The notes under the pieces: model-generated
What the model saw: only the letters and a program-made list of their open reading frames with translations
Told to the model about the DNA's origin: nothing
The model's database searches: none
Shown here: in pieces, positions 3,601 to 54,262 of the stretch
How the letters are laid out: every line of letters begins with the position of its first letter
Numbering within the stretch: position 1 is the first letter of the stretch
Program-made: the position numbers and the translations under genes
NCBI GenBank assembly: GCA_016165875.1
Contig: JABBOT010000022.1
Span: forward strand, 5,849,724 to 5,913,723
Length of the DNA: 64,000 nucleotides
Origin: Acanthopleura granulata
Taxonomy: Eukaryota > Mollusca > Polyplacophora > Chitonida > Chitonidae
Direction: 5' to 3'

Positions 3601-6600
3601 CCTCAATCAGTGTGGAAATATACTGTTTTGATAAGACTTTTGTCAAAACCCACCTCGAACCCAGTCAAAGACGGAAAGGAAGTTTTCAGAGATATATGTC
3701 CTCTGGCCATTGCTGTGTTTCAGGAAGCAGATTGTTTGCGGGCAGCTGTAGACCTGGTGGGCAGACTCATCACGTCAGCAGGCCAGGGGGTGGGAAGAAT
3801 CAGCCAGGTCACACAGCACTCCCCTCACACCTTACAGGTAAGATATAGGGCCAGAGGGTGGGGAGAATCAGCCAGGTCACACGACACTCCCCACACATCT
3901 TACAGGTAAGATGCAGGGCCAGAGGGTGGAGAGATTCAGCCAGGTCACACAACACTCCCCACACACCTTACCGGTAAGATGTAGGGTCACTGAGTGAGGA
4001 GAAACAGCCAGGTCACACAACACTGCCCACACACCTTACCGGGTCACTGAGTGAGGAGAAACAGCCAGGTCACATGACACTCCCCTCACACCTTACAGGT
4101 AAGATGCAGGGCCAGGGGTGGGGAGAATCAGCCAGATCACACTCCCCTCACACCTTACATGTAAGATGTAGGGTCATTGAGTGAGGAGAAACAGCCAGGT
4201 CACACACCTTACATGTAAGATGTAGAGCCAGAGGGTGGGGAGAATCAGCCAGGTCACACGACACTCCCCACACACCGTACAGGTAAGATGTAGGGTCATT
4301 GAGTGAGGAGAATCAGCCAGGTCACACGACACTCTCCTCACACCTTACATGTAAGACGCAGGGCCAGGGGGTGGTGAGAATCAGCCAGGTCACACAACAC
4401 TCGCCTCACACCTTACAGGTAAAATGTAGGGACATTGAGCGAGAAGAAACAACAGGTCGCATAACACTCCCCTCACACCTTACATGTAACATGTAGGGGC
4501 AGAGGGTGGGGAGAATCAGCCAGGTCACACGACACTCCCCTCACACCTTACAGGTAAGATGTTGAGCCAGAGGGTGGGGAGAATCAGCCAGGTCACACAA
4601 CACTCCCCTCACACCTTACAGGTAAGATGTAGAGCCAGAGGGTGGGGAGAATCAGCCAGGTCACACAACACTCCCCACACCACTTACAGGTAAGATGTAG
4701 GGCCAGGGGTGGGGAGAATCAGCCAGATCACACAACACTCCCCAAACACCTTACATGTAAGATGTAGGGCCAGAGGGTGGGGAGAATCAGCCAGGTCACA
4801 CAACACTCCCCTCACACCTTACAGGTAAGATGTTGAGCCAGAGGGTGGGGAGAATCAGCCAGGTCACACAACACTCCCCACACCACTTACAGGTAAGATG
4901 TAGGGCCAGGGGGTGGGGAGAATCAGCCAGGTCACACAACACTCCCCTCACACTTTACATGTAAGATGTAGGGTCAGGGGGTGGGGAGAATCAGTCAGGT
5001 CACACGACACTCCCCTCACACCTTACATGTAAGATGTTGAGCCAGGGGGTGGGGAGAATCAGCCAGGTGACACGACACTCCCCTCACACCTTACATGTAA
5101 GATGTAGGGTCATTGAGTGAGAAGAAACAACAGGTTACATAACACTCCCCTCACACCTTACATGTCAGATGTAGGGCCAGAGGATGGGGGGAATCAGCCA
5201 GGTCACACGACACTCCCCTCACACCTTACATGTAAGATGTAGGGCCAGGGGGTGGGGAGAATCAGCCAGGTCACACAACACTCCCCTCACACCTTACAGG
5301 TAAGATGTAGGGCCAGGGGGTGGGGAGAATCAGCCAGGTCACACGACACTCCCCTCACACCTTACATGTAAGATGTAGGGCCAGGGGGTTGGGAGATCCA
5401 GCCAGGTCACACGACACTCGCCTCACACCTTGCATGTAAGATGTAGGGCCAGGGGGTTGGGAGATTCAGCCAGGTCACACAACACTCCCCACACACCGTA
5501 CAGGTAAAATGTAGGGGTAGGGGAGAATCTGAACTGACCACATGCCTTATAAGAATTCATTAGGGATCTCTTGCCTTCACTTGCCATCTTAACTGTAATG
5601 AGATGTTGAATGTACTCTGCTCATGACAAGCTGTGTGTCATAATGGTATATGGGGAAAGTTAGCCAGTTATCTGTGTGGAAGGTTAGCCAGTTACCTGTG
5701 GAGAAAGTTTGTCAGTTACCTGTGGAGAAAGATTGTCAAAGGATTTCACTCCAGGGTTTTCTGCACCATACAACCAACCAGCATTGTGTACATGTAGGAG
5801 AAAAAATTTAAGCAGGTGTGAAAAAAAAAAACAGGAGGTTGATCGTTCCCTCAAAAATGTATCAAGCCATTTGCACAGCTGTGGATTAACAAGCAACCAA
5901 TCACTGAGTGACCTGTACTGTATGTTACAGCTGTGGTTCCTACGCCTGACCTTACTCACCAAGCTGAGATTATACAGTCTGGCGGAATCCGAGTCCCAGG
6001 CCTTCAAGAACCTGGACACGGCCGACCTGTACTACGACTACTACCCTCAGTTACATCCTGGCAAACGCGGTGAGATCTGTGTACAGCTCTACATATACCT
6101 GTAAGGCCGTCTGGAACAGAAATGTTTGTGTGACGTAACCGTAACTACCCATCGAAAAGGAAAGTCCACCTGACAAACGTTTTGATTGAGTCTTTTTTAT
6201 GTTAACATTTTTCCTGGGCAGTTTACCTTGTGTTGAAAAATTTAACAGGAAAAAAATAAAAACCCAACCTACTGCACGCTTCCAAAAAGAGTCAGGCTAT
6301 GTGAAATAAATGTTTTTTCAAAGATGACCTAATGTAAGTAAATTATTTGACATCAGAAATCTGTGTTCTGGCTATAGAGACATGTCAAACAGCAAACAGA
6401 GACGTTTGTGTAAATATTCAGTAATGTGTTTGGTGTCTTTTGATGAGCACAAAATTACTGTATTAAAGCGTATGATTATAGTTCTGCTGACCCGAATGTT
6501 TTGTCAGGTATCTCGAGAAGAGCGCTTGTTTAGACTTGGTGCATCCACCCATAAACTTGGCAGACAGGACAGAAGATAAAAAGTCTGTAGTACAACATTA

Positions 6601-9600: not shown

Positions 9601-11497
9601 GGACGGATCGCCATAAGCCAGTTAGTAGAGTTACACCAGTTTTGTATCGAAGGAAAAGACAATGAAGAAAAAAAACTGTCATCATGAGATACTCAACTGA
9701 AAAACTGTATCTAAATACATATTCGTGAATATATTTATTGAAACTTTCTCAAAAGAAATTAAATGCATTTAAATGTTTTTCTTCTGAACTGGGCTTTATT
9801 ATAAAGCTGTGTAAAAGTAAGTATTGACAGCATAGTTCAATACTTCTCGATCACACAAGGACCTTGAGTGTGGAGCTTGTAAAGGCTTGGTCTTCACACA
9901 CTGTGTCATATCGAGTTCAGTAATTGGGTTAGATTAACGACTTAAAAATTTAGAAAGTGACATTGTGGGCTGAATGAGTAGGCTGACCAGGAGTCATTTT
10001 TGGCTTTAAACCTTGAATTCACAATTGGAATAACATATATTAACGTAGATTGTGTCATTCACTTGATAAGTATTTTGTACATGGCTAAACATAAAGGTAA
10101 AGATGCCATGCTAAACAGATACGGTCAGTAAAGCCTAAAAACAAGTGAAGATATTTTTAGAAACAGTTTTCTGCTACATGTCACCCTTGATGCAGGCATT
10201 TCTTAAAATTCATGGATAAGAAGAAATTATTCGCTATTTTAATATTAATAAAATACATGTATAGTTTATTTTAGTGTAAACAAAGGTTCAAAGCTCTCAA
10301 TTAATGCTGAAATGTTGCAAATGTTATTGAAATGCCTTGGTAGAACATGGGTTACATTTGTACTATGTTTACCTCTATACCGGAAGACATCAGTTGACAT
10401 ATGGTGATCTGTACCAGTGAACTCTCTCTCTGAGGAATACATGTACTGCTTGTTCACAGTGGTCTTGTGGCGTTGTCAAGGAACAACTTCAATGAGGCCT
10501 ACCAATACTTCACAGCAGCCAGGAAAGCCGACCCATCAAACCCTATCGTAAGTAAAAACACGCCACACTACTGTGTAGGACTGAGTGTGGAGTCTTAGGA
10601 GCAGACATAGGAATCATCAGCTACTGAACCTGGTGGATAACAGCATTCACTGGTGCATAGTCCCAGATTAGAAATCAGTTTAGAAGCTACGAAGGCCCTG
10701 GTTTTCCATTGGCTCTTATGTTGTAAAACAGTGCTTGCTGGCTCAGTTGGGGTTTTAAAACATGAGAACAATTTTCAGGCATCTTGTAAGGTGTAGTGGT
10801 TTACTTCTGGCAAAAATTCCTGGAATGAGACTTAAGGTTTAGCTTTTCATTGACACTCTGTTTTGACCATGTATAGAAGAGGCTAAGATTCCATGTGTCA
10901 CTCAGGTGTGAGGTGTGATCTTGTGAGGTGTAGTGGTTTTCCTCTGGCCCAGATTGCTGGAATCAGATTTAAGTTTTAGCTTTTCATTGGCATTCTGTTT
11001 TGACCATATATAGAAGAGGCTAAGTTTCCATGTGTTACTCAAACTAAGTATTGTTTGTAAAATCTGGTTTTGGCTGTGCCTTGGTTCCTCGACACATAAA
11101 CCTGACCACAGTTATATTGGTGAAATGCATCTAAAGCACCAATCAAGTGAAGAGATTTGCAGTGGTGGTTTGTGTGGAAACTGCCAGGTAAGGTGTCAAA
11201 CTTGATCCCGTGAAGATGTAGATGTATGAAGGGATTATTTGTTTGGTTTGTCAGGCTGTGAACAACCTGGCTGTGTGTTACCTGTACATGGGGAAGCTGA
11301 AGGAGTCGCTGAACACCCTTGAGGGCATGATACAGTCCGACCCCAGTAAGAACCTCCACGAGGGCGTCTTGTTCAACCTCTGTACCCTGTATGAGCTTGA
11401 GTCATCCAGGGCATCCCAGAAGAAGGTTGCACTGCTAGAAATGGTCAGCAAACATAAGGGGGACAGTTTCCCAGTGGCCAGTCTGAAGCTAGCCTAA
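638..11497 (+). CDS. TRAPPC12: TRAPPC12 homologue, trafficking protein particle complex subunit 12 (11 coding exons)
   Basis: Coding exons with in-phase GT-AG junctions: 638-1885, 2626-2742, 3724-3837, 5931-6069, 6722-6834, 7645-7717, 8296-8369, 8871-8969, 9523-9620, 10460-10547 and 11255-11497. They sum to 2,406 nt, or 801 residues plus stop; the human protein is 735. Residues 1 to about 365 are acidic, Ser/Pro/Glu-rich and probably disordered. The conserved block [19 protein letters not shown] lies near 367-385, DLYYDYYP closes exon 4, [15 protein letters not shown] opens exon 5, and exons 8-11 form the C-terminal TPR region ending in [11 protein letters not shown]. These match human TRAPPC12 throughout. 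In known biology the protein is a TRAPP-III subunit acting in ER-Golgi transport and autophagy, with a reported mitotic kinetochore role. I chose Met 638 because it gives the acidic N terminus; an in-frame ATG at 620 would add six residues. The oddity is the donor-carrying minisatellite in intron 3. Confidence 0.93.
2909..2950. repeat. Near-perfect hairpin palindrome in TRAPPC12 intron 2
   Basis: The arms 2909-2927 and 2932-2950 are perfectly complementary over 19 bp, with only a 4-nt loop (CGGA). A short direct repeat (ACTTGAGAATAAAAA, twice) precedes the left arm at about 2882-2910. The right arm also marks where similarity to the duplicated segment at 44,653 begins, so this hairpin sits at a duplication breakpoint. 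Confidence 0.8.
3783..5515 (+). repeat. Minisatellite made of the TRAPPC12 exon 3 end plus its 5' splice site
   Basis: About 25 imperfect units of roughly 67-68 bp (a few shorter) run head to tail. The first unit is the last ~55 nt of coding exon 3 (3783-3837) with its donor; all the others lie in intron 3. Each unit contains AATCAGCCAGGTCACAC, then a C-rich stretch, then TTACAG|GTAAGATG or a variant. About ten units keep a perfect CAG|GTAAG donor core (for example after 3905 and 4098); most others read CATGTAAG. Two unit families alternate irregularly, GGCCAGAGGGTGGGGAG and GGTCATTGAGTGAGGAG. The unit length is not a multiple of three, so moving to the next donor shifts the frame. Reading straight through exon 3 meets a stop at 3907-3909, formed by the TAA of the second donor. 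Confidence 0.93.
5645..5738 (+). repeat. Short tandem repeat of ~27 bp in TRAPPC12 intron 3
   Basis: Three to four degenerate units of the type GGAAAGTTAGCCAGTTA(T/C)CTGTG follow one another ahead of the exon 4 acceptor (AG at 5929-5930). They are unrelated in sequence to the large minisatellite upstream. No function is evident. Confidence 0.6.
6917..7046. mobile_element. Small MITE-like fold-back element in TRAPPC12 intron 5
   Basis: The left end CTCAGTTTCATAAAGTGCAC and the right end GAGTGCACTTCATGAAATGG are imperfect inverted repeats enclosing about 90 bp without coding potential. This is the form of a short non-autonomous DNA transposon. I could not identify a clean target-site duplication, so the ends are approximate. 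Confidence 0.5.
10783..11041 (+). repeat. Direct duplication of 122 bp in TRAPPC12 intron 10
   Basis: Segments 10783-10904 and 10920-11041 are the same length and align without large gaps. Both start CTTGT(A/G)AGGTGTAGTGGTTT, share AGCTTTTCATTG and TAGAAGAGGCTAAG, and end in T(C/T)ACTCA, with roughly 15 substitutions between them. A 15-bp spacer separates the copies. Confidence 0.8.
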
Positions 11498-15153: not shown

Positions 15154-15534
15154 TCACTGGAGTGATTTCTTGGACTTCTTGGGCAGAAGAACAGACTGAA
15201 TGTTTGGCAGAACACCTCCTTTAGCAATGGCCACACCGGACAGCAGTCTGTTCAGCTCCTCATCATTACGGACGGCTAGCAGCAGGTGACGAGGGATGAT
15301 GGTCCTCCTCTTGTTATCTCGGGCAGCGTTTCCAGCCAACTCCAACACCTCAGCGGTCAAGTATTCCATCACAGCGGCCAGGTAAACCGGAGCCCCGGCA
15401 CCGATACGGTTAGAGTAGTTGCCTCTCCTCAGAAACCGGTGAATACGACCCACAGGAAACTGCAGACCAGCCCTTGATGAGCGGGTCTGGCTCTTGCCAC
15501 TCTTCGCCTTTCCTCCTTTGCCACGTCCAGACAT
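15154..15534 (-). CDS. Histone H2A, divergent form (unit 1)
   Basis: 126 codons, intronless. I chose the Met of [16 protein letters not shown] at 15534; the upstream in-frame Met (MEIK) at 15546 lies in the leader. The histone fold is complete: [49 protein letters not shown] and [19 protein letters not shown]. Numbering without Met matches human H2A. The acidic patch (E56, E61, E64, D90, E91, E92) and K118/K119 are kept. Unusual residues are S40-N41, R75-R76-T77 in place of K-T-R, L84 for Q, A101 for T, K104 for the near-invariant Q, and S120 for T. There is no SQ tail, so it is not H2A.X. It packages DNA as a dimer with H2B; the neighbouring H2B on the same strand is the likely partner. TATA box and 3' stem-loop are both present. 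Confidence 0.96.
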
Positions 15535-24469: not shown

Positions 24470-27400
24470 GCTGGAGCCCGGCTTGTAAAGTTGGAGGGAA
24501 AACCAGAGCGCGGACCGAACAGAGGGCATAAAAAGTCACGTTTCACTGGCGGGCTGTGTTAGTAGACGATAGAGTGGACTGAATTTTCTACACAATAACA
24601 CAACAACGACCATTGTTTAATCAAACAGATCTATCAATATACAGAGCTCGTTATATGGCTAGCATTGAGGTAACCGCTTCTGAAGCCAAAGCACTTCAAG
24701 GGGACGATTACACATGGTTGCCTGCTAGACCAAAACGGCTTTCTCCTCTCAGTAATGGAAGGAAAACTCAAACTGGAGCTCTGTTCTCGAATATGGGGCT
24801 TACCAAGTGTCTCCTGGGTAAATACTATCACGTAAGAAAACAAGCAGTGAGTAACCGAAGTGCATGTCCGTAGTGAACAACGAGCGTATGGCTACAGCTC
24901 CCAATGGTAAATACATAGGAAGCACAGGCATACAACGCTATAAACAGAATCGTTTTTTGTATGATGGATTATTCCTGGAAGACGCTATTCTAATAATGCG
25001 CTATGTTACTTTATGTCCTACGTTTGCACAAATATGACTGGGTGTGTGGGAAATGCAGTTATTGAACCATACTGAGAAATCTTTATCGTTCCCTTATATG
25101 CCCACATTAAAACCAAAGTGAGTGAATATCAAGGGTATACTTCATACGACACGTAAATATGAACATTCATAGCCCATGATATTGTCCTCTAGAATAACTT
25201 AACTTTCAAGGGGGACAGCTCTCCCATCCATATGCTGCATACAAATTACATGACGGTCTAGGGGAGATAACTGCGCCATGTAGCCTGCATTATAAACAGT
25301 ATATCAGCTGAGATAAAATCGATGACACCATTTGAACAGATAGAATGGTGAGAGAAATTGATATACCACAGCCCAAACAATTTATTCACTTGAAAAAGGG
25401 TGTCCAGTTGTCAGGTTCGACAAACGAGATAAAAATTGGTCATTCTGGTACATGTAAACCATTTCCATGAAGTCACTTATGACAAAGAGTACCGAGATCT
25501 GGCAAGTAGAGGTCAGTTCGCACACTACGCCCCTCTGAGATGTCCTGCCGGGTGTCTGCTTCACGGCAATTCTGGACCACGTTAATCTATTCACATAACA
25601 GAATCAATTTAAGTACAGGAAAAGGCCCATGTCGAAAAATTATAGTTTTATAGCAACCAACCATATCAAACAATGTACCAGATAGAAAAGAGGAAGCGTG
25701 AACTATGTCATATAAAAAAGTCTTTAATCTCAAAACGTCATATGGCAGTATACGTGTCGACCCAGGAAAAGCCTACACATAAATGTAGACCATAATGTAT
25801 GATGACATCCAGACCTTATGCATGTGTCGACACAGGAAAAGCCTACACATAAATATGGACCATAATGTATGATGACATCCAGACCTTATGCTTGTGTCGA
25901 CACAGGAAAAGCCTACACATAAATGTAGACCATAATGTATGATGACATCCAGACCTTATGCATGTGTCGACACAGGAAAAGCCTACACATAAATATAGAC
26001 CATAATGTATGATGACATCCAGACCTTATGCTTGTGTCGACACAAGAAAAGCCTACACATAAATGTAGACCATAATGTATGATGACATCCAGATCTTATG
26101 CTTGGATAATTAAGAGCACTTTATCACTCAGATTATTTACGGGACAGAGGCCAGCTTTATCAGCCGGGACTCTCTAACCTCATGTCTGGAAACTACTCTG
26201 AGTAATCGCCAGCTCACTTCCTAAACATTCTATGTTTGCTAGACATGAAGTTATTACATAATTAATATTTCTCGACGTCTTTAATCCAGTTGTATATCAG
26301 AATGAAATGAAGTAATGGAAGAGGCATTGAAAACCGATGTCAAAAATATTATATTTATTACAACAAGCAATATCAAAGAATGTAGCAGACAAAAGGCACC
26401 AGATATGAAAAATGTCATATAAAAGAAAAGCCTTTGCAGTCTAAAAATTCCTTATCGCAAAATATGCATATATTCAAAGGCGAAAAGCATACACATAAAT
26501 GGAGACAGAGACTTGAGGAAGTATCCATTGTGCTGCAAATAGTAAACTGACGGCTGCTCTGAACAATTCTCCGTCACGTGGCCGTCCGAATAACAGGACT
26601 CACCGAAACCATTACAACGAGACAATCTGAAGCGTTCAGACAGTCGTTGTTCAGTTTTCATGAAATAAAATTAAGTTTTGATACATTGGTGACACATTTT
26701 GTACTGACATTTCTGATATGGTTAAACTGAGCTTCTAGAAAGAAATGGGCTAGAATAACCCCTGAGGAAGCCATATCCATACAACACCAGAGAAGTGAAT
26801 CAACAGTTACATGTCGAAATGAAAGGGACATTGGTCTCCATATCCCAACAGTTGTCAACAATTATTTACATTGCCTGTATCATGCGACAAATTTACCTTT
26901 TTTTTATTTTATAATGTGTTTTTTTTTATTTTATGGCTCAAGTCACGGCGAGAGGTCAAATCAGTACAATGTGTGTTGTGGTCTGTAATAACACGAGATT
27001 CATGCATGGTGACGGGAGAAGGTAGTCAACAGAGCTGCATTCTGAAAAGCCTACTGAGTCTATCTTTTTAGCATTTTTGTAAGACGATTCCTTACAGCAA
27101 CAAAACTGACAGAAAAAATAATGAGTATATAAACCATAAGAAATGCCCGTTCTGTAAATGTAAACGAGCCTCCAGAGTGACTCTCACAGCTTGGCAATGG
27201 TAAAAGAAACAGTTGCATTTCTTCTTTAAATGGTTTCTTTGACAAGAGCTGGGAACAAAATACAGGAACAGAAAGACGCAGAACCACAGATAAACACACT
27301 GATGCAATGGAAGGGGGAAGCCTGGGGTTGGGTGGATGAACTGAGTACTGCTGTCTATATATAGTAAACTTTTCGTAAAACTGAGTTGTTTTACATGTGA

Positions 27401-32277: not shown

Positions 32278-35200
32278 GCTGGAGCCCGGCTTGTAAAGTT
32301 GGAGGGAAAAACCAGAGCGCGGACCGAACAGAGAGCATGAAAAGTCACGTTTCACTGGCGGGCTGTGTTAATAGACGATAGAGTGGACTGAATTTTCTAC
32401 ACAATAACACAACAACGACCATTGTTTAATCAAACAGATCTATCAATATACAGTGGTCGTTATATGGCTAGCATTGAGGTAACCGCTTCTGAAGCCAAAG
32501 CACTTCAAGGGGACGATTACACATGGCCTGCCTGCTAGACCAAAACTTCTTTCTCCTCTCAGTAATGGAAGGAAAACTCAAACTGGAGCCCTGTTCCCGA
32601 ATATGGGGCTTACCAAGTATCTCCTGGGTAAATACTATCACGTAAGAAAACAAGCAGTGAGTAACCAAAGTGCATGTCCGTAGTGAACAACGAGCGTATG
32701 GCTACAGCTCCCTACGGTGAAGACATACGAAGCACAGACATACAACGCTATAAACAGAATCGTTTTTTGTAATATGGATTATTCCTGGAAGACGCTATTC
32801 TAATAATGCGCTATGTTACTTTATGTCCTACGTTTGCACAAATATGACTGGGTGTGTGGGAGATGCAGTTATTGAACCATACTGAGAAATCTTTATCGTT
32901 CCCTTATATGCCCACATTAAAACCAAAGTGAGTGAATATCAAGGGTATACTTCATACGACACGTAAATATGAACATTCACAGCCCATGATATTGTCCTCT
33001 AGAATAACTTAACTTTCAAGGGGGACAGCTCTCCCATCCATATGCTGCATACAAATTACATGACGGTCTAGGGGAGATAACTGCGCCATGTAGCCTGCAT
33101 TATAAACAGTATATCAGCTGATAAAATCGATGACACCATTTGAACAGATAGAATAGTGAGAGAAATTGATATACCACAGCCCAAACAATTTATTCACTTG
33201 AAAAAGTGAAAAATGTGTCCAGTTGTCAGGTTCGACAAACGAGATAAAAATTGGTCATTCTGGTACATGTAAACCATTTCCATGAAGTCACTTATGACAA
33301 AGAGTACCGAGATCTGGCAAGTAGAGGTCAGTTCGCACACTACGCCCCTCTGAGATGTCCTGCCGGGTGTCTCCTTCCCGGCAATTCTGGACCACGTTAA
33401 TCTAGTCACATAACAGAATCAATTTAAGTACAGGAAAAGGCCCATGTCCAAAAATTATAGTTTTATAGCAACCAACCATATCAAACAATGTACCACATAG
33501 AAAAGAGGAAGCGTGAACTATGTCATATAAAAAAGTCTTTAATCTCAAAACGTCATATGGCAGTATACGTGTCGACCCAGAAAAAGCCTACATATAAATG
33601 TAGACCAGAATGTATGATGACATGCAGACCTTATGCATGTGTCGCCACAGGAAAAGCCTACACATAAATGTAGACCATAATGTATGATGACATCCAGACC
33701 TTATGCTTGTGTCGACACAGGAAAAGCCTACACATAAATATAGACCATAATGTATGATGACATGCAGACCTTATGCTTGTGTCGACACAAGAAAAGCCTA
33801 CACATAAATGTAGACCATAATGTATGATGACATGCAGACCTTATGCATGTGTCGAGACAAGAAAAGCCTACACATAAATGTAGACCATAATGTATGATGA
33901 CATCCAGATCTTATGCTTGGATAATTAAGAGCACTTTATCTCTCAGATTATTTACGGGACAGAGGCTAGCTTTATCAGCCGGGACTCTCTAACCTCATGT
34001 CTGGAAACTACTCTGAGTAATCGCGAGCTCACTTCCTAAACATTCTATGTTTGCTAGACATGAAGTTATTACATAATTAATATTTCTCGACGTCTTTAAT
34101 CCAGTTATCTATCAGAATGAAATTAAGCAAGGGAAGAGGCATTCAAAACCGATGTCAAAAAGATTATATTTATTACAACAAGCAATATCAAAGAATGTAG
34201 CAGACAAAAGGCACCAGATATGAAGAACCAGAGACTTGAGGAAGTATCCATTGTGCTGCAAATAGTAAACTGACGGCTGCTCTGAACAATTCTCCGTCAC
34301 GTGGCTCTCCGAATAACAGGACTCACCGAAACCATTACAACGAGACAATCTGAAGCGTTCAGACAGTCGTTGTTCAGTTTTCATGAAATAAAATTAAGTT
34401 TTGATACATTGGTGACACATTTTGCACTGACATTTCTGATATGTTTAAAGTGAGCTTCTAGACAGAAATGGGCTAGAATAACCCCTGAGGAAGCCATATC
34501 CATACAACACCAGAAAAGTGAATAAACAGTTACATGTCGAAATGAAAGGGACATTGGTCTCCATATCCCAACAGTTGTCAACAGTTATTTACATTGCCTG
34601 TATCATGCGACAAATTTACCTTTTTTTTTATTTTATAATGTGTTTTTTTTTTTTTTTTATGGCTCAAGTCACGGCGAGAGGTCCAATCAGAACAATGTGT
34701 ATTGTGGTCTGTAATAACACGAGATTCATGCATGGTGACGGGAGAAGGTAGTCAACAGAGCTGCATTCTGAAAAGCCTACTGAGTCTATCTTTTTGGCAT
34801 TTTTGTAAGACGATTCCTTACAGCAACAAAACTGACAAAAAAATTAATGAGTATATAAACCATAAGAAATGCCCGTTCTGTAAATGTAAACGAGCCTCAA
34901 GAGTGACTCTCACAGCTTGGCAATGGTAAAAGAAACACTTGCATTTGTTCTTTAAATGGTTTCTTTGACAAGAGCTGGGAACAAAATACAGGAACAGAAA
35001 GACGCAGAACCACAGATAAACACACTGATGCAATGGAAGGGGGGAGCCTGGGTGTGGGTGGATGAACTGATTACTGCTGTCTATATATAGTAAACTTTTT
35101 GTAAAACTGAGTTGTTTTACATGTGAAAAAAAAATTCTAAAATTTTAAAAGATGGAAAAGAAATGAATTCTGGTAAAAACCTGAACATTTACAAAAATAG

Positions 35201-49900: not shown

Positions 49901-52900
49901 AGTATAATACTCACTTGGTTCTCAGGTAACAGGTGAGCACCTTAATACAGTTATCTGCCTCTCTAGCAGGTGACAAGTCCCTCCCACCCCACAGGCCCTG
50001 GTAGGCCACCCCTAGCTGGAGCCAGTACAGGTGATACTGAGGGTGACAGGTTATCAGTCTCTGCAGCACAGGCACATCTTCTGCCCAGTGAAAACAGAAA
50101 CAAACAGAAAGCAACAAGATTAGTTCACCTGTATGTTGATGGTCTCTAAGCATGAGGACTGAGTGATTTTTGTGAATCTGGAGTGCCCCTTGCTAAAACC
50201 ACATACACTAAGCACATTACTGATGAACTTTTCCACTTGCAGTATGTACATACATATATGCACACCACACTGATGTAGGATAATGGTCTAAAAGCGACAC
50301 AAGATTGTACAAAGGTTAGGTAGATCTGCTTCTTGTACATTGTTGGGGAATGACCTTACCTGTAAAGTCTTCAGTCTTAGATGTGATGTAACAGTGACAG
50401 TCCCTGGACTTCATGATCATCATTAGTGCCTTGTTCACACTGAGAACAATTCTTGTACATTGTTGGGGAATGACCTTACCTGTAAAGTCTTCAGTCTTCA
50501 TGTAGATGTGATGTAACAGTGACAGTTCCTGGACTTCTTGATCATCATTAGTGCCTTGTTCACACTGAGAACAATTCTTGTACATTGTTGGGGAATGACC
50601 TAACTTGTAAAGTCTTCAGTTTTAGATGTGATGTAACAGTGACAGTCCCTGGACTTCATGATTATCATTAGTGCCTTGTTCACACTGAGAACAATTCTTG
50701 TACATTGTTGGGGAATGGTCTTACCTGTAAAGTCTTCAGTTTTCATGTAGATGTGATGTAACAGTGACAGTCCCTGGACTTCATGATTATCATTAGTGCC
50801 TTGTTCACACTGAGAACAATTCTTGTACATTGTTGGGGAATGGTCTTACCTGTAAAGTCTTCAGTTTTCATGTAGATGTGATGTAACAGTGAGAGTTCCT
50901 GGACTTCATGATCATCATTAGTGCCTTGTTCACACTGAGAACAATTCTTGTACATTGTTGGGGAATGGTCTTACCTGTAAAGTCTTCAGTCTTAGATGTG
51001 ATGTAACAGTGACAGTCCCTGGACTTCACGATCATCATTAGTGCCTTGTTCACACTGAGAACAATTCTTGTACATTGTTGGGGAATGGTCTTACCTGTAA
51101 AGTCTTCAGTTTTCATGTAGATGTGATGTAACAGTGACAGTCCCTGGACTTCATGATCATCATTAGTGCCTTGTTCACACTGAGAACAATTCTTGTACAT
51201 TGTTGGGGAATGGTCTTACCTGTAAAGTCTTCAGTTTTCATGTAGATGTGATGTAACAGTGACAGTCCCTGGACTTCTTGATTATCATTAGTGCCTTGTT
51301 CACACTGAGAACAATTCTTGTACATTGTTGGGGAATGGTCTTACCTGTAAAGTCTTCAGTTTTCATGTAGATGTGATGTAACAGTGACAGTCCCTGGACT
51401 TCATGGTCATCATTAGTGCCTTGTTCACACTGAGAACAATTCTTGTACATTGTTGGGGAATGACCTTACCTGTAAAGTCTTCAGTCTTCATGTAGATGTG
51501 ATGTAACAGTGACAGTCCCTGGACTTCATGATCATCATTAGTGCCTTGTTCACACTGAGAACAATTCTTGTACATTGTTGGGGAATGGTCTTACCTGTAA
51601 AGTCTTCAGTTTTCATGTAGATGTGATGTAACAGTGACAGTCCCTGGACTTCATGGTCATCATTAGTGCCTTGTTCACACTGAGAACAATTCTTGTACAT
51701 TGTTGGGGAATGGTCTTACCTGTAAAGTCTTCAGTCTTCATGTAGATGTGATGTAACAGTGACAGTCCCTGGACTTCATGATCATCATTAGTGCCTTGTT
51801 CACACTGAGAACAATTCTTGTACATTGTTGGGGAATGGTCTTACCTGTAAAGTCTTCAGTTTTCATGTAGATGTGATGTAACAGTGACAGTCCCTGGACT
51901 TCATGGTCATCATTAGTGCCTTGTTCACACTGAGAACAATTCTTGTACATTGTTGGGGAATGGTCTTACCTGTAAAGTCTTCAGTCTTCATGTAGATGTG
52001 ATGTAACAGTGACAGTCCCTGGACTTCATGATCATCATTAGTGCCTTGTTCACACTGAGAACAGACAAACAAGATGTGATACAACAGTGACTGCCCCTGG
52101 ACTTTTTGATCTTCATTAGTGCCCTGTTCACACAGACAAGGAATAAACAAGATGTGATACACTGGTATCTGATTTTCTCCACGTTTGGGTCACAAAAAAA
52201 TTGTTGAAAGTAAACATTATGGCCTTTAGGCGGTCTTACCTGCCTTCCACCACTATGGTATACACCTTGAGTTAGTTCTACAGGTGCAAATGGCTGAAGG
52301 TGGGAATGGATCAGTACGACTAAAGGTTCAATCACTTCGTTTTTCTCCAATCACATAACTGATTGTCACAACAAAAGCAAACAATTCTTCAGTATATCAT
52401 CAAAACCCATCAAATACACATATGTAAAATTAGTGAAGAAACCAAGAGTTTCTAAACTGGGTCAAATTCCACAATGATCTCTAGGGAAAACCTAAATGCA
52501 ACATTTCTAATTCTGTCCTACTGCTGTGAATTTGGAGAGTAACAAACCAGTTGTTTGGCCACACGCACAGCCTCTGCCTTGTTTCCGCTGTCCAGATGAC
52601 ATCGACTCAGAGATTCCAGCACATCACGACGCATACACATTCCACTAGGAGGAAGTAAGTCTGAAACAGGAAATTACAGATTTTCATCACTAGCTCATAA
52701 TCCCTGGGGAGCACTTTGGCGGCATGGACTCACCCTGCTACAAGGAGATGGCATATCTACATTCTAAGGACTCCTCACTGTCATATGATTGAAAAATTGT
52801 TCAGTAGGACATAAAGCCCAAGCATACATACACAATACATAACCTTGGGGCTGATTGCACAAGGACAGTGGTGACTTTATACATGGAAATTTGAAATGTG

Positions 52901-54262
52901 ACTTCAGCCCTTAATTTATTTTAGACAGCTTGACTTTAACTGGGATTACTTAAGAAGTCTTATCTTAGGACATATATTTGAATACGTAAAGACTTTGTAA
53001 TCTAATAACAGTATTTAATATCTCCCCAAATTTGGAGCATCTCCAGCTTGTCAGGCAGCCAGGCTTGTTTAATGTGGATGTCAGTATTTCTTCCATATGG
53101 TATAAACCTGACTGACATCATATAAGTGAAAACTTCTTGAGCACAGTATTAAACAAAATCAATTAGAAAAAAAAAATTGAAACTGTATTGCCAACAATGT
53201 TTGTTCAGTGAGAATCTTACCAAATATTTATACTTGTTAGATATTTTGGCTGAGCTTCGTCACAATTGCCAGCCATCCTTGTTCAATGTGAATCTTACCC
53301 AATATTGTTTGATATTTTTCCTTAGCTTTGTCGTATCTGCCAGACATGTGGTGATAATCTGCGCTGAACTTCAGCTGTGTGATTCTACTCTCATCACTAT
53401 CAGGTTCTTCATCCTCAAACCACTGCAAAGACAAAATGTCAAAACACATTTTCCAATACTGCACAAACTTCAATCAGTTTTGTTATTTTCACATTGTTTT
53501 TACATACAAAAATGATACATGAAACCAAAACACTCAAACCATTTTCAGATGCCACAAGCCCCAGACCTACAGCAACACATATGTACATATGAGTCTCATA
53601 GTAGGCCTAATTACACATAATCAAAATCTGGTTTCAAAGTCGTTTTGGTTATAAATATATATGTGATACTTTTACCATACTCTCTTTTACCTTCACTGTA
53701 CTGATTACACTCATTTCAATCTGACACATACACTGTACTTTCAGTCTCACTGCATTTTCACTCAGTGTTAGCTATACAGCTTTGTAGCATTCTAGCAGTG
53801 CTTCTATCTCATTTCACTGTGGTTACATATGTACTTACTTCATCACAGTTTTTGAACATCACATTGTATAACATTTTCAGTCCTATGACACATTTTAAGT
53901 TCAATAACACCTGTCATAATATATTGGAAAACTGCTGTGGGCTGCTGAGCAGTTTCCATTTTTCATTGTAATTAATAGGCTAGATTTTATGACAATATCA
54001 TCTTGTGCAACAATTTCTGGCAAAATTTTAAATCATGAATCCGTATGCAGGGAGTTTGGGTGAAGGGGTGGATGTGTGGACGGTGATAGAAAACGAGGAA
54101 TCAAGTGTGAATGGCCTTACAACAGTTCTCTTGGATCTCAGCCAACTTTACATACTGACTTACCAAGGGAGAACATATTTTGGCATTATATGATGTTAGT
54201 TTGTCATGAGGCATACATCTTCTTTCAGCAAGGAATATTGAGTCATCAAAGTTGAATTCCAT
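46937..54262 (-). CDS. C8orf76: C8orf76 homologue, uncharacterised TPR-like protein (nine coding exons)
   Basis: Exons in transcription order: 54262-54164, 53422-53299, 52660-52548, exon 4 (one of fourteen copies between 52054 and 50360), 50080-49915, 48785-48713, 47804-47676 (uncertain), 47340-47272 and 47023-46937. With a single 85-nt exon 4 the sum is 945 nt, or 314 residues plus stop; the human protein is 380. It matches human C8orf76 along its length: FNFDDSIFLAERR and YNAKICSPL-WFEDEE in exons 1-2, DVPVLQRLITCHPQ and LYWLQLGVAYQGL in exon 5, LLLQFSQ in exon 6, ISEVVEKMDF in exon 7 and FECRWFSWSNL in the last exon. Exons 2-6 look like helical TPR-type repeats. No biochemical role is established that I can state. 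The start could be 54292 (ten residues earlier). The main oddities are the exon 4 array and a frame conflict in exon 7. Confidence 0.82.
47850..48171 (+). mobile_element. tRNA-derived SINE in C8orf76 intron 6
   Basis: Has pol III promoter-like boxes: an A-box-like TGGCTGAGGTGC at 47864-47875 and a B-box-like GGTTCAATCCC at 47907-47917. The A-rich tail GGCGTTAAACAATTAAAAAA is at about 48140-48160. It is inserted antisense to C8orf76. Its head lies a few bases from a candidate exon 7 acceptor (minus-strand CAG ending at 47863), so part of the exon could be SINE-derived. Confidence 0.65.
50360..52054 (-). repeat. Array of 14 copies of C8orf76 exon 4 with 40-nt micro-introns
   Basis: A 125-bp unit repeats head to tail. 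On the minus strand each unit is a 40-nt intron, from GTAAGACCATTCC to TTGTTCTCAG, followed by an 85-nt exon starting TGTGAACAAGGCACTAATGA and ending GACTTTACAG. The exon copies (lower to upper coordinate) start at 50360, 50480, 50605, 50725, 50850, 50975, 51095, 51220, 51345, 51470, 51595, 51720, 51845 and 51970. Copies 50360, 50605 and 50975 lack 5 bp, giving an 80-nt exon with an in-frame TAA. Copy 50605 also has a weak donor (GTTAGG). Encoded 28-residue segments vary only at a few positions (NDDHEV, NDNHEV, NDDQEV). The acceptor of the first copy in transcription order (upper end 52054) has a long pyrimidine tract; internal ones are short. Confidence 0.95.
52070..52165 (-). repeat. Two degenerate partial copies of C8orf76 exon 4
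   Basis: Just upstream of the array in transcription order, a diverged copy still reads CEQGTNEDQKVQGQSLLYHI but has lost the AG acceptor (CTGTG in place of CTCAG) and its 3' end and donor. A shorter fragment (YHIL, then a Cys/Leu-rich stretch) precedes it. These are decayed members at the array edge. They contribute the pyrimidine-rich tract used by the first intact copy. Confidence 0.75.
52690..52830 (+). mobile_element. SINE-like remnant in C8orf76 intron 2
   Basis: The tail CATATGATTGAAAAATTGTT followed by AGTAGGACATAAAGCCCAAG matches the 3' end style of the other SINE remnants in the window. Its 5' end is unclear. Confidence 0.45.
53040..53175 (+). mobile_element. SINE-like remnant with A-rich tail in C8orf76 intron 2
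   Basis: Contains CATATAAGTGAAAACTTCTT and GAGCACAGTATTAAACAAAA followed by a run of A, a 3' end of the same type as the other remnants. It directly precedes the duplicated exon 2 tail. Confidence 0.45.
53203..53355 (-). repeat. Tandem duplication of the C8orf76 exon 2 end and donor
   Basis: The segment 53281-53355 holds the last ~57 nt of exon 2, its donor (TTGG|GTAAGATTC) and ~18 nt of intron. It is repeated about 78 bp downstream in transcription order at 53203-53280, in diverged form and still with TTTG|GTAAGATTC. The copy encodes only a degraded version of the exon end and would shift the frame if used. Confidence 0.8.

What the first reader, a model, noticed from the sequence alone, without database searches (positions are those of the whole stretch)
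50360..52054. Fourteen near-identical copies of one coding exon separated by 40-nt micro-introns
Seen directly: each 125-bp unit carries a complete acceptor (TTCTCAG), an 85-nt exon and a donor (ACAG|GTAAG), all in register, inside the C8orf76 homologue. The flanking exons need exactly one copy to match the human protein, and 85 nt keeps the frame only for 1, 4, 7... copies. From established splicing knowledge, introns of about 40 nt are at or below the usual animal minimum, so adjacent copies should not be joined. Inference: the array works as a set of mutually exclusive, almost synonymous exons, a redundant-exon buffer, unlike Dscam-type arrays whose exons differ. The first copy has the strongest pyrimidine tract and may be favoured.
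Basis: partly seen in the sequence, partly recalled or inferred. Interest (0 to 1): 0.9.

Follow-up and report, generated by a model that had tools for sequence, protein, structure and literature searches.

The report
Repeated exon minisatellite in chiton gene
In a chiton gene one small protein-coding exon is copied fourteen times in a row like a minisatellite, and the sequence suggests that the cell uses the first copy and leaves the others in the intron, much like the splice-site-bearing repeats described in lancelet genes.

Summary
The array is real. Window 50330-52063, minus strand, holds 14 tandem copies of exon 4 of the C8orf76/DUF5588 homologue, all with an AG acceptor and 13 with a CAG|GTAAG donor, separated by 13 introns of 40 nt. 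Correction: copies 9, 12 and 14 carry a 5-nt deletion that makes an in-frame stop; copy 12's donor is damaged too. Genome size and contig number point to the chiton Acanthopleura granulata (inference). The repeat unit carries only about 10 nt of upstream intron: copies 2-14 lack a clean branch/AG-free region, whereas copy 1 resembles 12 other acceptors of the window. Best reading: copy 1 is exon 4; copies 2-14 are intronic pseudo-exons, a whole-exon form of the amphioxus 'mirage'. A donor-type array lies in TRAPPC12 in the same window. Genome-wide, donor-word arrays outnumber the reversed control 701 to 66, the word itself 26,722 to 13,339. No RNA data were available.

The parts
54164..54262 (-). 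C8orf76 homologue exon 1 (ATG ... CCC TTG|GTAAGT)
   Evidence: protein colinear with L. sinensis P0001
53299..53422 (-). exon 2 (124 nt)
52548..52660 (-). exon 3 (113 nt), ends in phase 0 at a weak donor CTG|GTTTGT
   Evidence: donor score 2.88 with recalled weights
52064..52161 (-). older, degenerate partial duplication of the acceptor side of exon 4 (period 78); the word ATCACATCT occurs both in it and in the exon
   Evidence: TRF 51994-52161, period 78, 2.2 copies; sequence
51970..52054 (-). exon 4 copy 1, intact; the only copy with a full acceptor (AG-free zone 34 nt, two clean UNAY motifs)
51845..51929 (-). copy 2, intact, truncated acceptor
51720..51804 (-). copy 3, intact, truncated acceptor
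51595..51679 (-). copy 4, intact, truncated acceptor
51470..51554 (-). copy 5, intact, truncated acceptor
51345..51429 (-). copy 6, intact, truncated acceptor
51220..51304 (-). copy 7, open, D-to-N and H-to-Q changes
51095..51179 (-). copy 8, intact, truncated acceptor
50975..51054 (-). copy 9, 80 nt, 5-nt deletion gives a stop
50850..50934 (-). copy 10, open, G-to-E change
50725..50809 (-). copy 11, open, D-to-N change
50605..50684 (-). copy 12, 80 nt, stop, donor CAA|GTTAG
50480..50564 (-). copy 13, open, H-to-Q and G-to-E changes
50360..50439 (-). copy 14, 80 nt, stop; borders the downstream intron
49915..50080 (-). exon 5 (166 nt), acceptor ...TTTTCACTGGGCAG
3781..5516 (+). second splice-site-bearing minisatellite, in TRAPPC12: 68-bp unit with an exon 3' end and its donor; of 24 GTAA sites only the first (3838) joins in frame to the exon at 5931
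   Evidence: same junction (LQ|LWF) in the predicted L. sinensis TRAPPC12 P0002

Best explanation
The array is a minisatellite whose repeat unit contains one whole exon: about 10 nt of upstream intron, the 85-nt exon and about 30 nt of downstream intron. Copy 1 keeps the upstream intron with its branch region and pyrimidine tract and is the exon that is normally spliced in. Copies 2-14 have strong donors (copy 12 excepted) but truncated acceptors, so they stay inside the 1.9-kb intron as pseudo-exons. If any of them is joined in addition, the frame runs into GTG TGA or an earlier stop. It is a whole-exon form of the 'mirage' minisatellites described in amphioxus, tolerated here because the unit carries no complete acceptor. 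Shown: anatomy, frames, acceptor contrast, single segment in predicted homologues. Inferred: use of copy 1, silence of the others, decay of faulty transcripts.
For: AG-free zone before the acceptor: copy 1 34 nt; 12 other acceptors that I could place in the two genes 19 nt or more (12 of 12); copies 2-14 10 nt (13 of 13). UNAY motif with no AG between: copy 1 yes, others 11 of 12, copies 2-14 0 of 13. Pyrimidine fraction 0.75 in copy 1, 0.50 in copies 2-14, 0.55-0.85 in the 12 others. Single-copy products open for 11 of 14, multi-copy 0 of 16,369, skipping the array gives a stop. Copies 1-6 all encode the consensus peptide; 7 of the 8 copies 7-14 carry amino-acid changes or stops. The four homologues found have one segment. 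In TRAPPC12 24 GTAA donors follow an exon and only the first is productive. In amphioxus such arrays were said not to interfere with splicing (PMC3087553, PMC3902484, passages).
Against: No transcript was seen. The 12 control acceptors are those that I placed, not all of the two genes. The full criterion is loose: 7 sites per kb of a 200-kb sample pass it, 54% of random YCAG sites also have a zone of 10 nt or less, and one real acceptor lacks the motif. Use of the internal AG, or of the AG upstream of it, is not excluded. Copies 1-6 are alike partly by recent duplication, so their intactness is weak evidence for use of copy 1. In 4 of 12 other arrays more than half of the inter-donor stretches do hold an acceptor that passes the loose test, so 'no full acceptor in the unit' is not a general rule. 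The homologues are predicted proteins, whose gene models might hide an array.
Confidence: 0.62

Rival explanations
1. Redundant mutually exclusive exon array: any one of 11 intact copies is spliced in, giving almost synonymous products; short introns and frame block double inclusion.
For: Strong donors on 13 of 14 copies, 40-nt introns, only single inclusion open.
Against: Truncated acceptors on copies 2-14; three stop copies; short introns do not stop joining of copies i and i+2. Pairing of the unit with the flanking introns: 40 of 100 shuffles as good for intron 3, 2 of 100 for intron 4, simple shuffles, one sequence, so a docking structure is neither shown nor excluded.
Confidence: 0.15
2. 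Noisy splicing: several copies compete, part of the transcripts carries two or more copies or a stop copy and is degraded, so copy number tunes C8orf76 output.
For: Internal AG sites and 13 donors remain; multi-copy and stop-copy products are non-coding; exon 3 has a weak donor.
Against: Internal acceptors look poor; no RNA evidence.
Confidence: 0.13
3. Assembly artefact: the true locus has one or a few copies.
For: A hybrid MaSuRCA assembly with 37x nanopore (PMC7850002, passages), if that is the source, can miscount repeats.
Against: Copies differ by linked variants, with the same 5-nt deletion in three separate copies; 1.7 kb is short for nanopore reads (general knowledge); comparable arrays occur in other genes of the assembly.
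Confidence: 0.05
4. An intact copy and a following 5-nt-deleted copy are used as one 205-nt exon with the micro-intron kept, giving an insertion in the protein.
For: 3 of 13 adjacent pairs stay open when the intron is kept; by arithmetic these are 8+9, 11+12 and 13+14.
Against: None of the four homologues has such an insertion; none of these pairs has copy 1's acceptor.
Confidence: 0.02

Closest known systems
Amphioxus 'mirages' (minisatellite-like duplications of exon-intron boundaries in Adh3, globins BflGb6 and BflGb9, TnC, PGBD5; PMC3087553 and PMC3902484, passages and one section)
   Same: Tandem repeat with a splice boundary in the unit, at a real exon; reported units of 10-72, 60, 108 and 150-160 bp; said not to interfere with regular splicing.
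   Different: Here the unit contains a whole exon with both splice sites, 14 copies, 40-nt introns, in a mollusc. The globin cases span one boundary; in PGBD5 imperfect repeats overlap exons 3 and 4.
Mutually exclusive exon arrays (Dscam type, recalled; human MXE clusters, PMC5740500, passages)
   Same: Tandem duplicated exons of equal phase; only single inclusion codes; short donor-to-branch distance and frame shift are named as exclusion mechanisms.
   Different: Copies are nearly identical, three are nonsense, internal acceptors are truncated, no evidence that more than one copy is used.
Earthworm metallothionein clone Lr6F14, exon 4 duplications (PMC12783039, passages)
   Same: Duplicated exon copies in a spiralian gene that are not in the final transcript.
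   Different: The passages seen do not describe a micro-intron array.

Membership tests
Mirage minisatellite | tandem repeat unit spans a real exon-intron boundary | tested here: met
   Copy 1 and copy 2 share 94 nt left of the donor (85 exon, 9 intron) and the unit runs 30 nt into the downstream intron
Mirage minisatellite | high identity between units / homogenisation | tested here: met
   94.2-100% pairwise, alternating two-unit pattern in copies 1-6
Mirage minisatellite | length polymorphism between haplotypes or somatic instability | not testable with these tools
   one haploid assembly only
Mirage minisatellite | normal splicing undisturbed, authentic boundary used | not testable with these tools
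   no RNA data held
Mutually exclusive exon array | exactly one copy gives a coding product | tested here: met
   11 of 14 single, 0 of 16,369 multi, skip = stop
Mutually exclusive exon array | each copy has a competent acceptor and donor | tested here: not met
   13 of 14 acceptors have a 10-nt AG-free zone and no clean branch motif; copy 12 donor damaged. Sequence criteria only, no splicing assay
Mutually exclusive exon array | junction reads from each copy to both flanking exons | not testable with these tools
   no RNA data held
Mutually exclusive exon array | competing RNA structure (docker/selector) | tested here: inconclusive
   one-sequence duplex energies; 40 of 100 (intron 3 flank) and 2 of 100 (intron 4 flank) shuffles as good

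The most novel reading that the evidence does not exclude
This chiton genome has a genome-wide process that preferentially amplifies exon 3' ends with their 5' splice sites into minisatellites, leaving perhaps a hundred or more genes with arrays of decoy donors behind a real exon; in C8orf76 the unit captured a whole exon, a ready-made test case for how the spliceosome picks one of many identical exons and for intron or exon birth from tandem repeats.
Probability: 0.35. Interest if true: 0.8.

Novelty: new variant of a known kind. Interest (0 to 1): 0.6.

Why it matters
Fourteen near-identical exons in one gene make a natural experiment on what defines an exon: nearly the same donor and exon body, with the acceptor context differing between copy 1 and the rest. 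If donor-bearing minisatellites are as common in this chiton as the pattern counts suggest, mirages are not an amphioxus curiosity but a recurrent class, and their proposed role in intron gain (PMC3087553) becomes testable across a whole genome. Such arrays may also mislead gene predictors, as reported for PGBD5 (PMC3902484).

Tried and rejected
Amphioxus as the source: suggested by the likeness to mirages, dropped when the best protein match was a chiton. Frame rule '1, 4, 7' tested and rejected. RNA docking: inconclusive. The 137-bp x 1.9 array at 10781-11041 overlaps no frame that I could match to TRAPPC12, so I take it as intronic (inference). A PDB search for TRAPPC12 gave generic TPR and TPR-containing proteins only. 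The first frame script used a wrong exon 1 and was discarded, redone. The first homology queries carried three wrong residues at the exon 1/2 junction and an unverified exon 8; the corrected protein was used. A general rule that units hold no full acceptor failed. Whole-exon pattern elsewhere: 15 matches genome-wide, 11 in this array, 3 in an array on C8 without an open frame, 1 on C6 not followed up. More motif controls (CAGGAATG, TTTTGCAG, and a listing of the reversed word) were asked for and never answered. The Fisher-type asymmetry of changes between copies 1-6 and 7-14 was not tested, because the copies are not independent.

Full report
What is there. On the minus strand, 50330-52063 is a tandem array, period 125, 14.0 copies, 96% match. 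Fourteen TTCTCAG acceptors lie in register. Exons are 85 nt in 11 copies and 80 nt in copies 9, 12 and 14, where a 5-nt deletion makes the frame read HHI-stop; 13 donors are CAG|GTAAG and copy 12's is CAA|GTTAG; the 13 inner introns are 40 nt. Units are 94.2-100% identical. A search of the 606.5-Mb own genome found the unit 14 times, all here.

The gene and the organism. The spliced product matches Pfam DUF5588, E 3.1e-29 (query with three wrong residues). Its best relative is the predicted C8orf76 homologue of the chiton Liolophura sinensis, 76% identical. A profile search, limited to relatives sharing short words, found four proteins (that chiton and three gastropods), each with one exon-4 segment. 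The own genome has 606,523,666 bases in 87 contigs; the Acanthopleura granulata assembly is given as 606.9 Mb in 87 scaffolds, from 37x nanopore and 204x Illumina reads with optical mapping (PMC7850002, passages). I infer that species; no call names it.

Frames. With exons 1-3 and 5-7 fixed, 11 of 14 single copies give an open product; copies 9, 12 and 14 stop. All combinations of 2 to 14 copies in order were tested: 0 of 16,369 open. Skipping the array gives a stop. Keeping the 40-nt intron between neighbours is open in 3 of 13 pairs; keeping the whole array is not. So, apart from those kept introns, only exactly one intact copy works, and the frame makes each multi-copy mRNA non-coding, four and seven copies included.

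Which copy. The unit starts only about 10 nt before the exon. Copy 1 therefore keeps the upstream intron, while copies 2-14 have the tail of a 40-nt intron there. I scored 12 other acceptors of the two genes, five of C8orf76 and seven of TRAPPC12; at least three more TRAPPC12 acceptors and the last C8orf76 exon were not scored. Copy 1: AG-free zone 34 nt, pyrimidine fraction 0.75, two clean UNAY motifs. Copies 2-14: zone 10 nt, fraction 0.50, no clean motif, 13 of 13. Controls: zone 19 nt or more in 12 of 12, fraction 0.55-0.85, clean motif in 11 of 12. Random YCAG sites of the window: 54% have a zone of 10 nt or less and 27% one of 19 nt or more (614 sites). The combined criterion is loose, met 7 times per kb in a 200-kb sample. 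The branch motif and the donor weights are recalled. Copies 1-6 encode the consensus peptide and 7 of copies 7-14 have changes or stops; recent duplication explains part of that. I conclude that copy 1 is most likely exon 4 and the others intronic pseudo-exons. Ultrashort human introns analysed before are 43 and 49 nt (PMC8363638, passage), so joining of neighbours is unlikely, but copies two apart could be joined, so sterics do not explain exclusivity.

How it arose. Before copy 1 lies an older partial duplication, period 78, with the word ATCACATCT in it and in the exon; I infer an unequal event there, then amplification of the 125-bp unit. Copies 1-6 alternate two types, as after a two-unit duplication.

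A second case in the window. TRAPPC12 on the plus strand has an array at 3781-5516, 68-bp unit, starting inside the 3' end of an exon. It holds 24 GTAA sites, 12 of them within CAG|GTAAR; only the first, at 3838, joins in frame to the exon at 5931. The predicted L. sinensis TRAPPC12 has the same junction.

Genome-wide. Three CAGGTAAG words spaced by 50-80 nt occur 701 times (313 + 388) against 66 (28 + 38) for the pattern read backwards. The single word occurs 26,722 times against 13,339. The excess in arrays (10.6-fold) is thus about five times that of the word. This rests on one control word, and matches are not independent: the first 100 listed of 701 fall into 16-19 clusters in 10% of the genome, and the control's clusters could not be seen. 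I fetched one stretch from each of 12 of the 16 clusters. In 8 of 12 an array donor, as a rule the first, ends an open frame of 48 residues or more; 27% of random positions do (20,000) and 3 of 17 single CAGGTAAG sites of the 200-kb sample; binomial tail 0.005 against random positions, with a threshold set after seeing the data. I gave Pfam ten peptides from nine of the 12 stretches: a ferric-reductase NAD-binding domain (1.3e-7) and a TPR protein (5.6e-9) match, an M17 peptidase (0.0086) and another TPR protein (0.0072) weakly and below cut-off. Of three peptides sent to the PDB one matched, VPS18, E 3.8e-5. So three of 12 arrays follow a well-supported coding exon, two a weakly supported one, three an open frame without a match, and four show none. 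In a 200-kb sample taken without regard to the word (25% of it beside the window) there were 17 arrays of period 20 or more and 2.8 or more copies, none with a donor word. A pattern for donor, micro-intron, acceptor, short exon, donor gave 15 matches and 0 in the control: 11 are this array, 3 an array on C8 without an open frame, 1 on C6 not followed up. The whole-exon form seems rare, within that pattern, and the donor form common.

Known kinds. Repeats spanning exon-intron boundaries are known as mirages in amphioxus Adh3, globins, TnC and PGBD5 and were said not to interfere with splicing (PMC3087553 passages, PMC3902484 passages and one section; the Adh paper was not held). Human MXE mechanisms include close branch points and frame shift (PMC5740500, passages). 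Earthworm metallothionein has exon duplications that are not in the transcript (PMC12783039, passages). Paper searches listed no whole-exon micro-intron array and no mirage in a mollusc; several listings were cut (15 of 384, 20 of 28, 10 of 161 and 8 of 12 shown) and most papers were seen as listings only.

Verdict. A new variant of a known kind: a whole-exon mirage in a chiton. The redundant-exon buffer is possible but not favoured.

Noticed in passing
window 3781-5516 (+): TRAPPC12 exon end followed by a 68-bp minisatellite with 24 GTAA sites, only the first productive: a mirage-type array in a second gene of the window.
   Followed up: yes
G000 genome-wide; L029-L040: Arrays with a consensus donor word outnumber the reversed word about tenfold (the word itself twofold), and of 12 fetched arrays three follow a well-supported coding exon and five more an open frame.
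   Followed up: partly
window 15154-63732: Repeated histone-like frames (H2A-like at 15154, 22603, 30694, 38463, 57286 and 63253, H2B-like between them, some interrupted), spaced about 6-8 kb, with the C8orf76 gene between the fourth and fifth. Names recalled, frames.
   Followed up: no
window 25754-26104 and 33569-33916: Two closely similar 70-bp x 5 arrays about 7.8 kb apart, within the histone-like repeats.
   Followed up: no
L041 (C8:9715000-9720000): 98-bp x 5.9 array with donor word and TTTTCAG in the unit but no open frame.
   Followed up: partly
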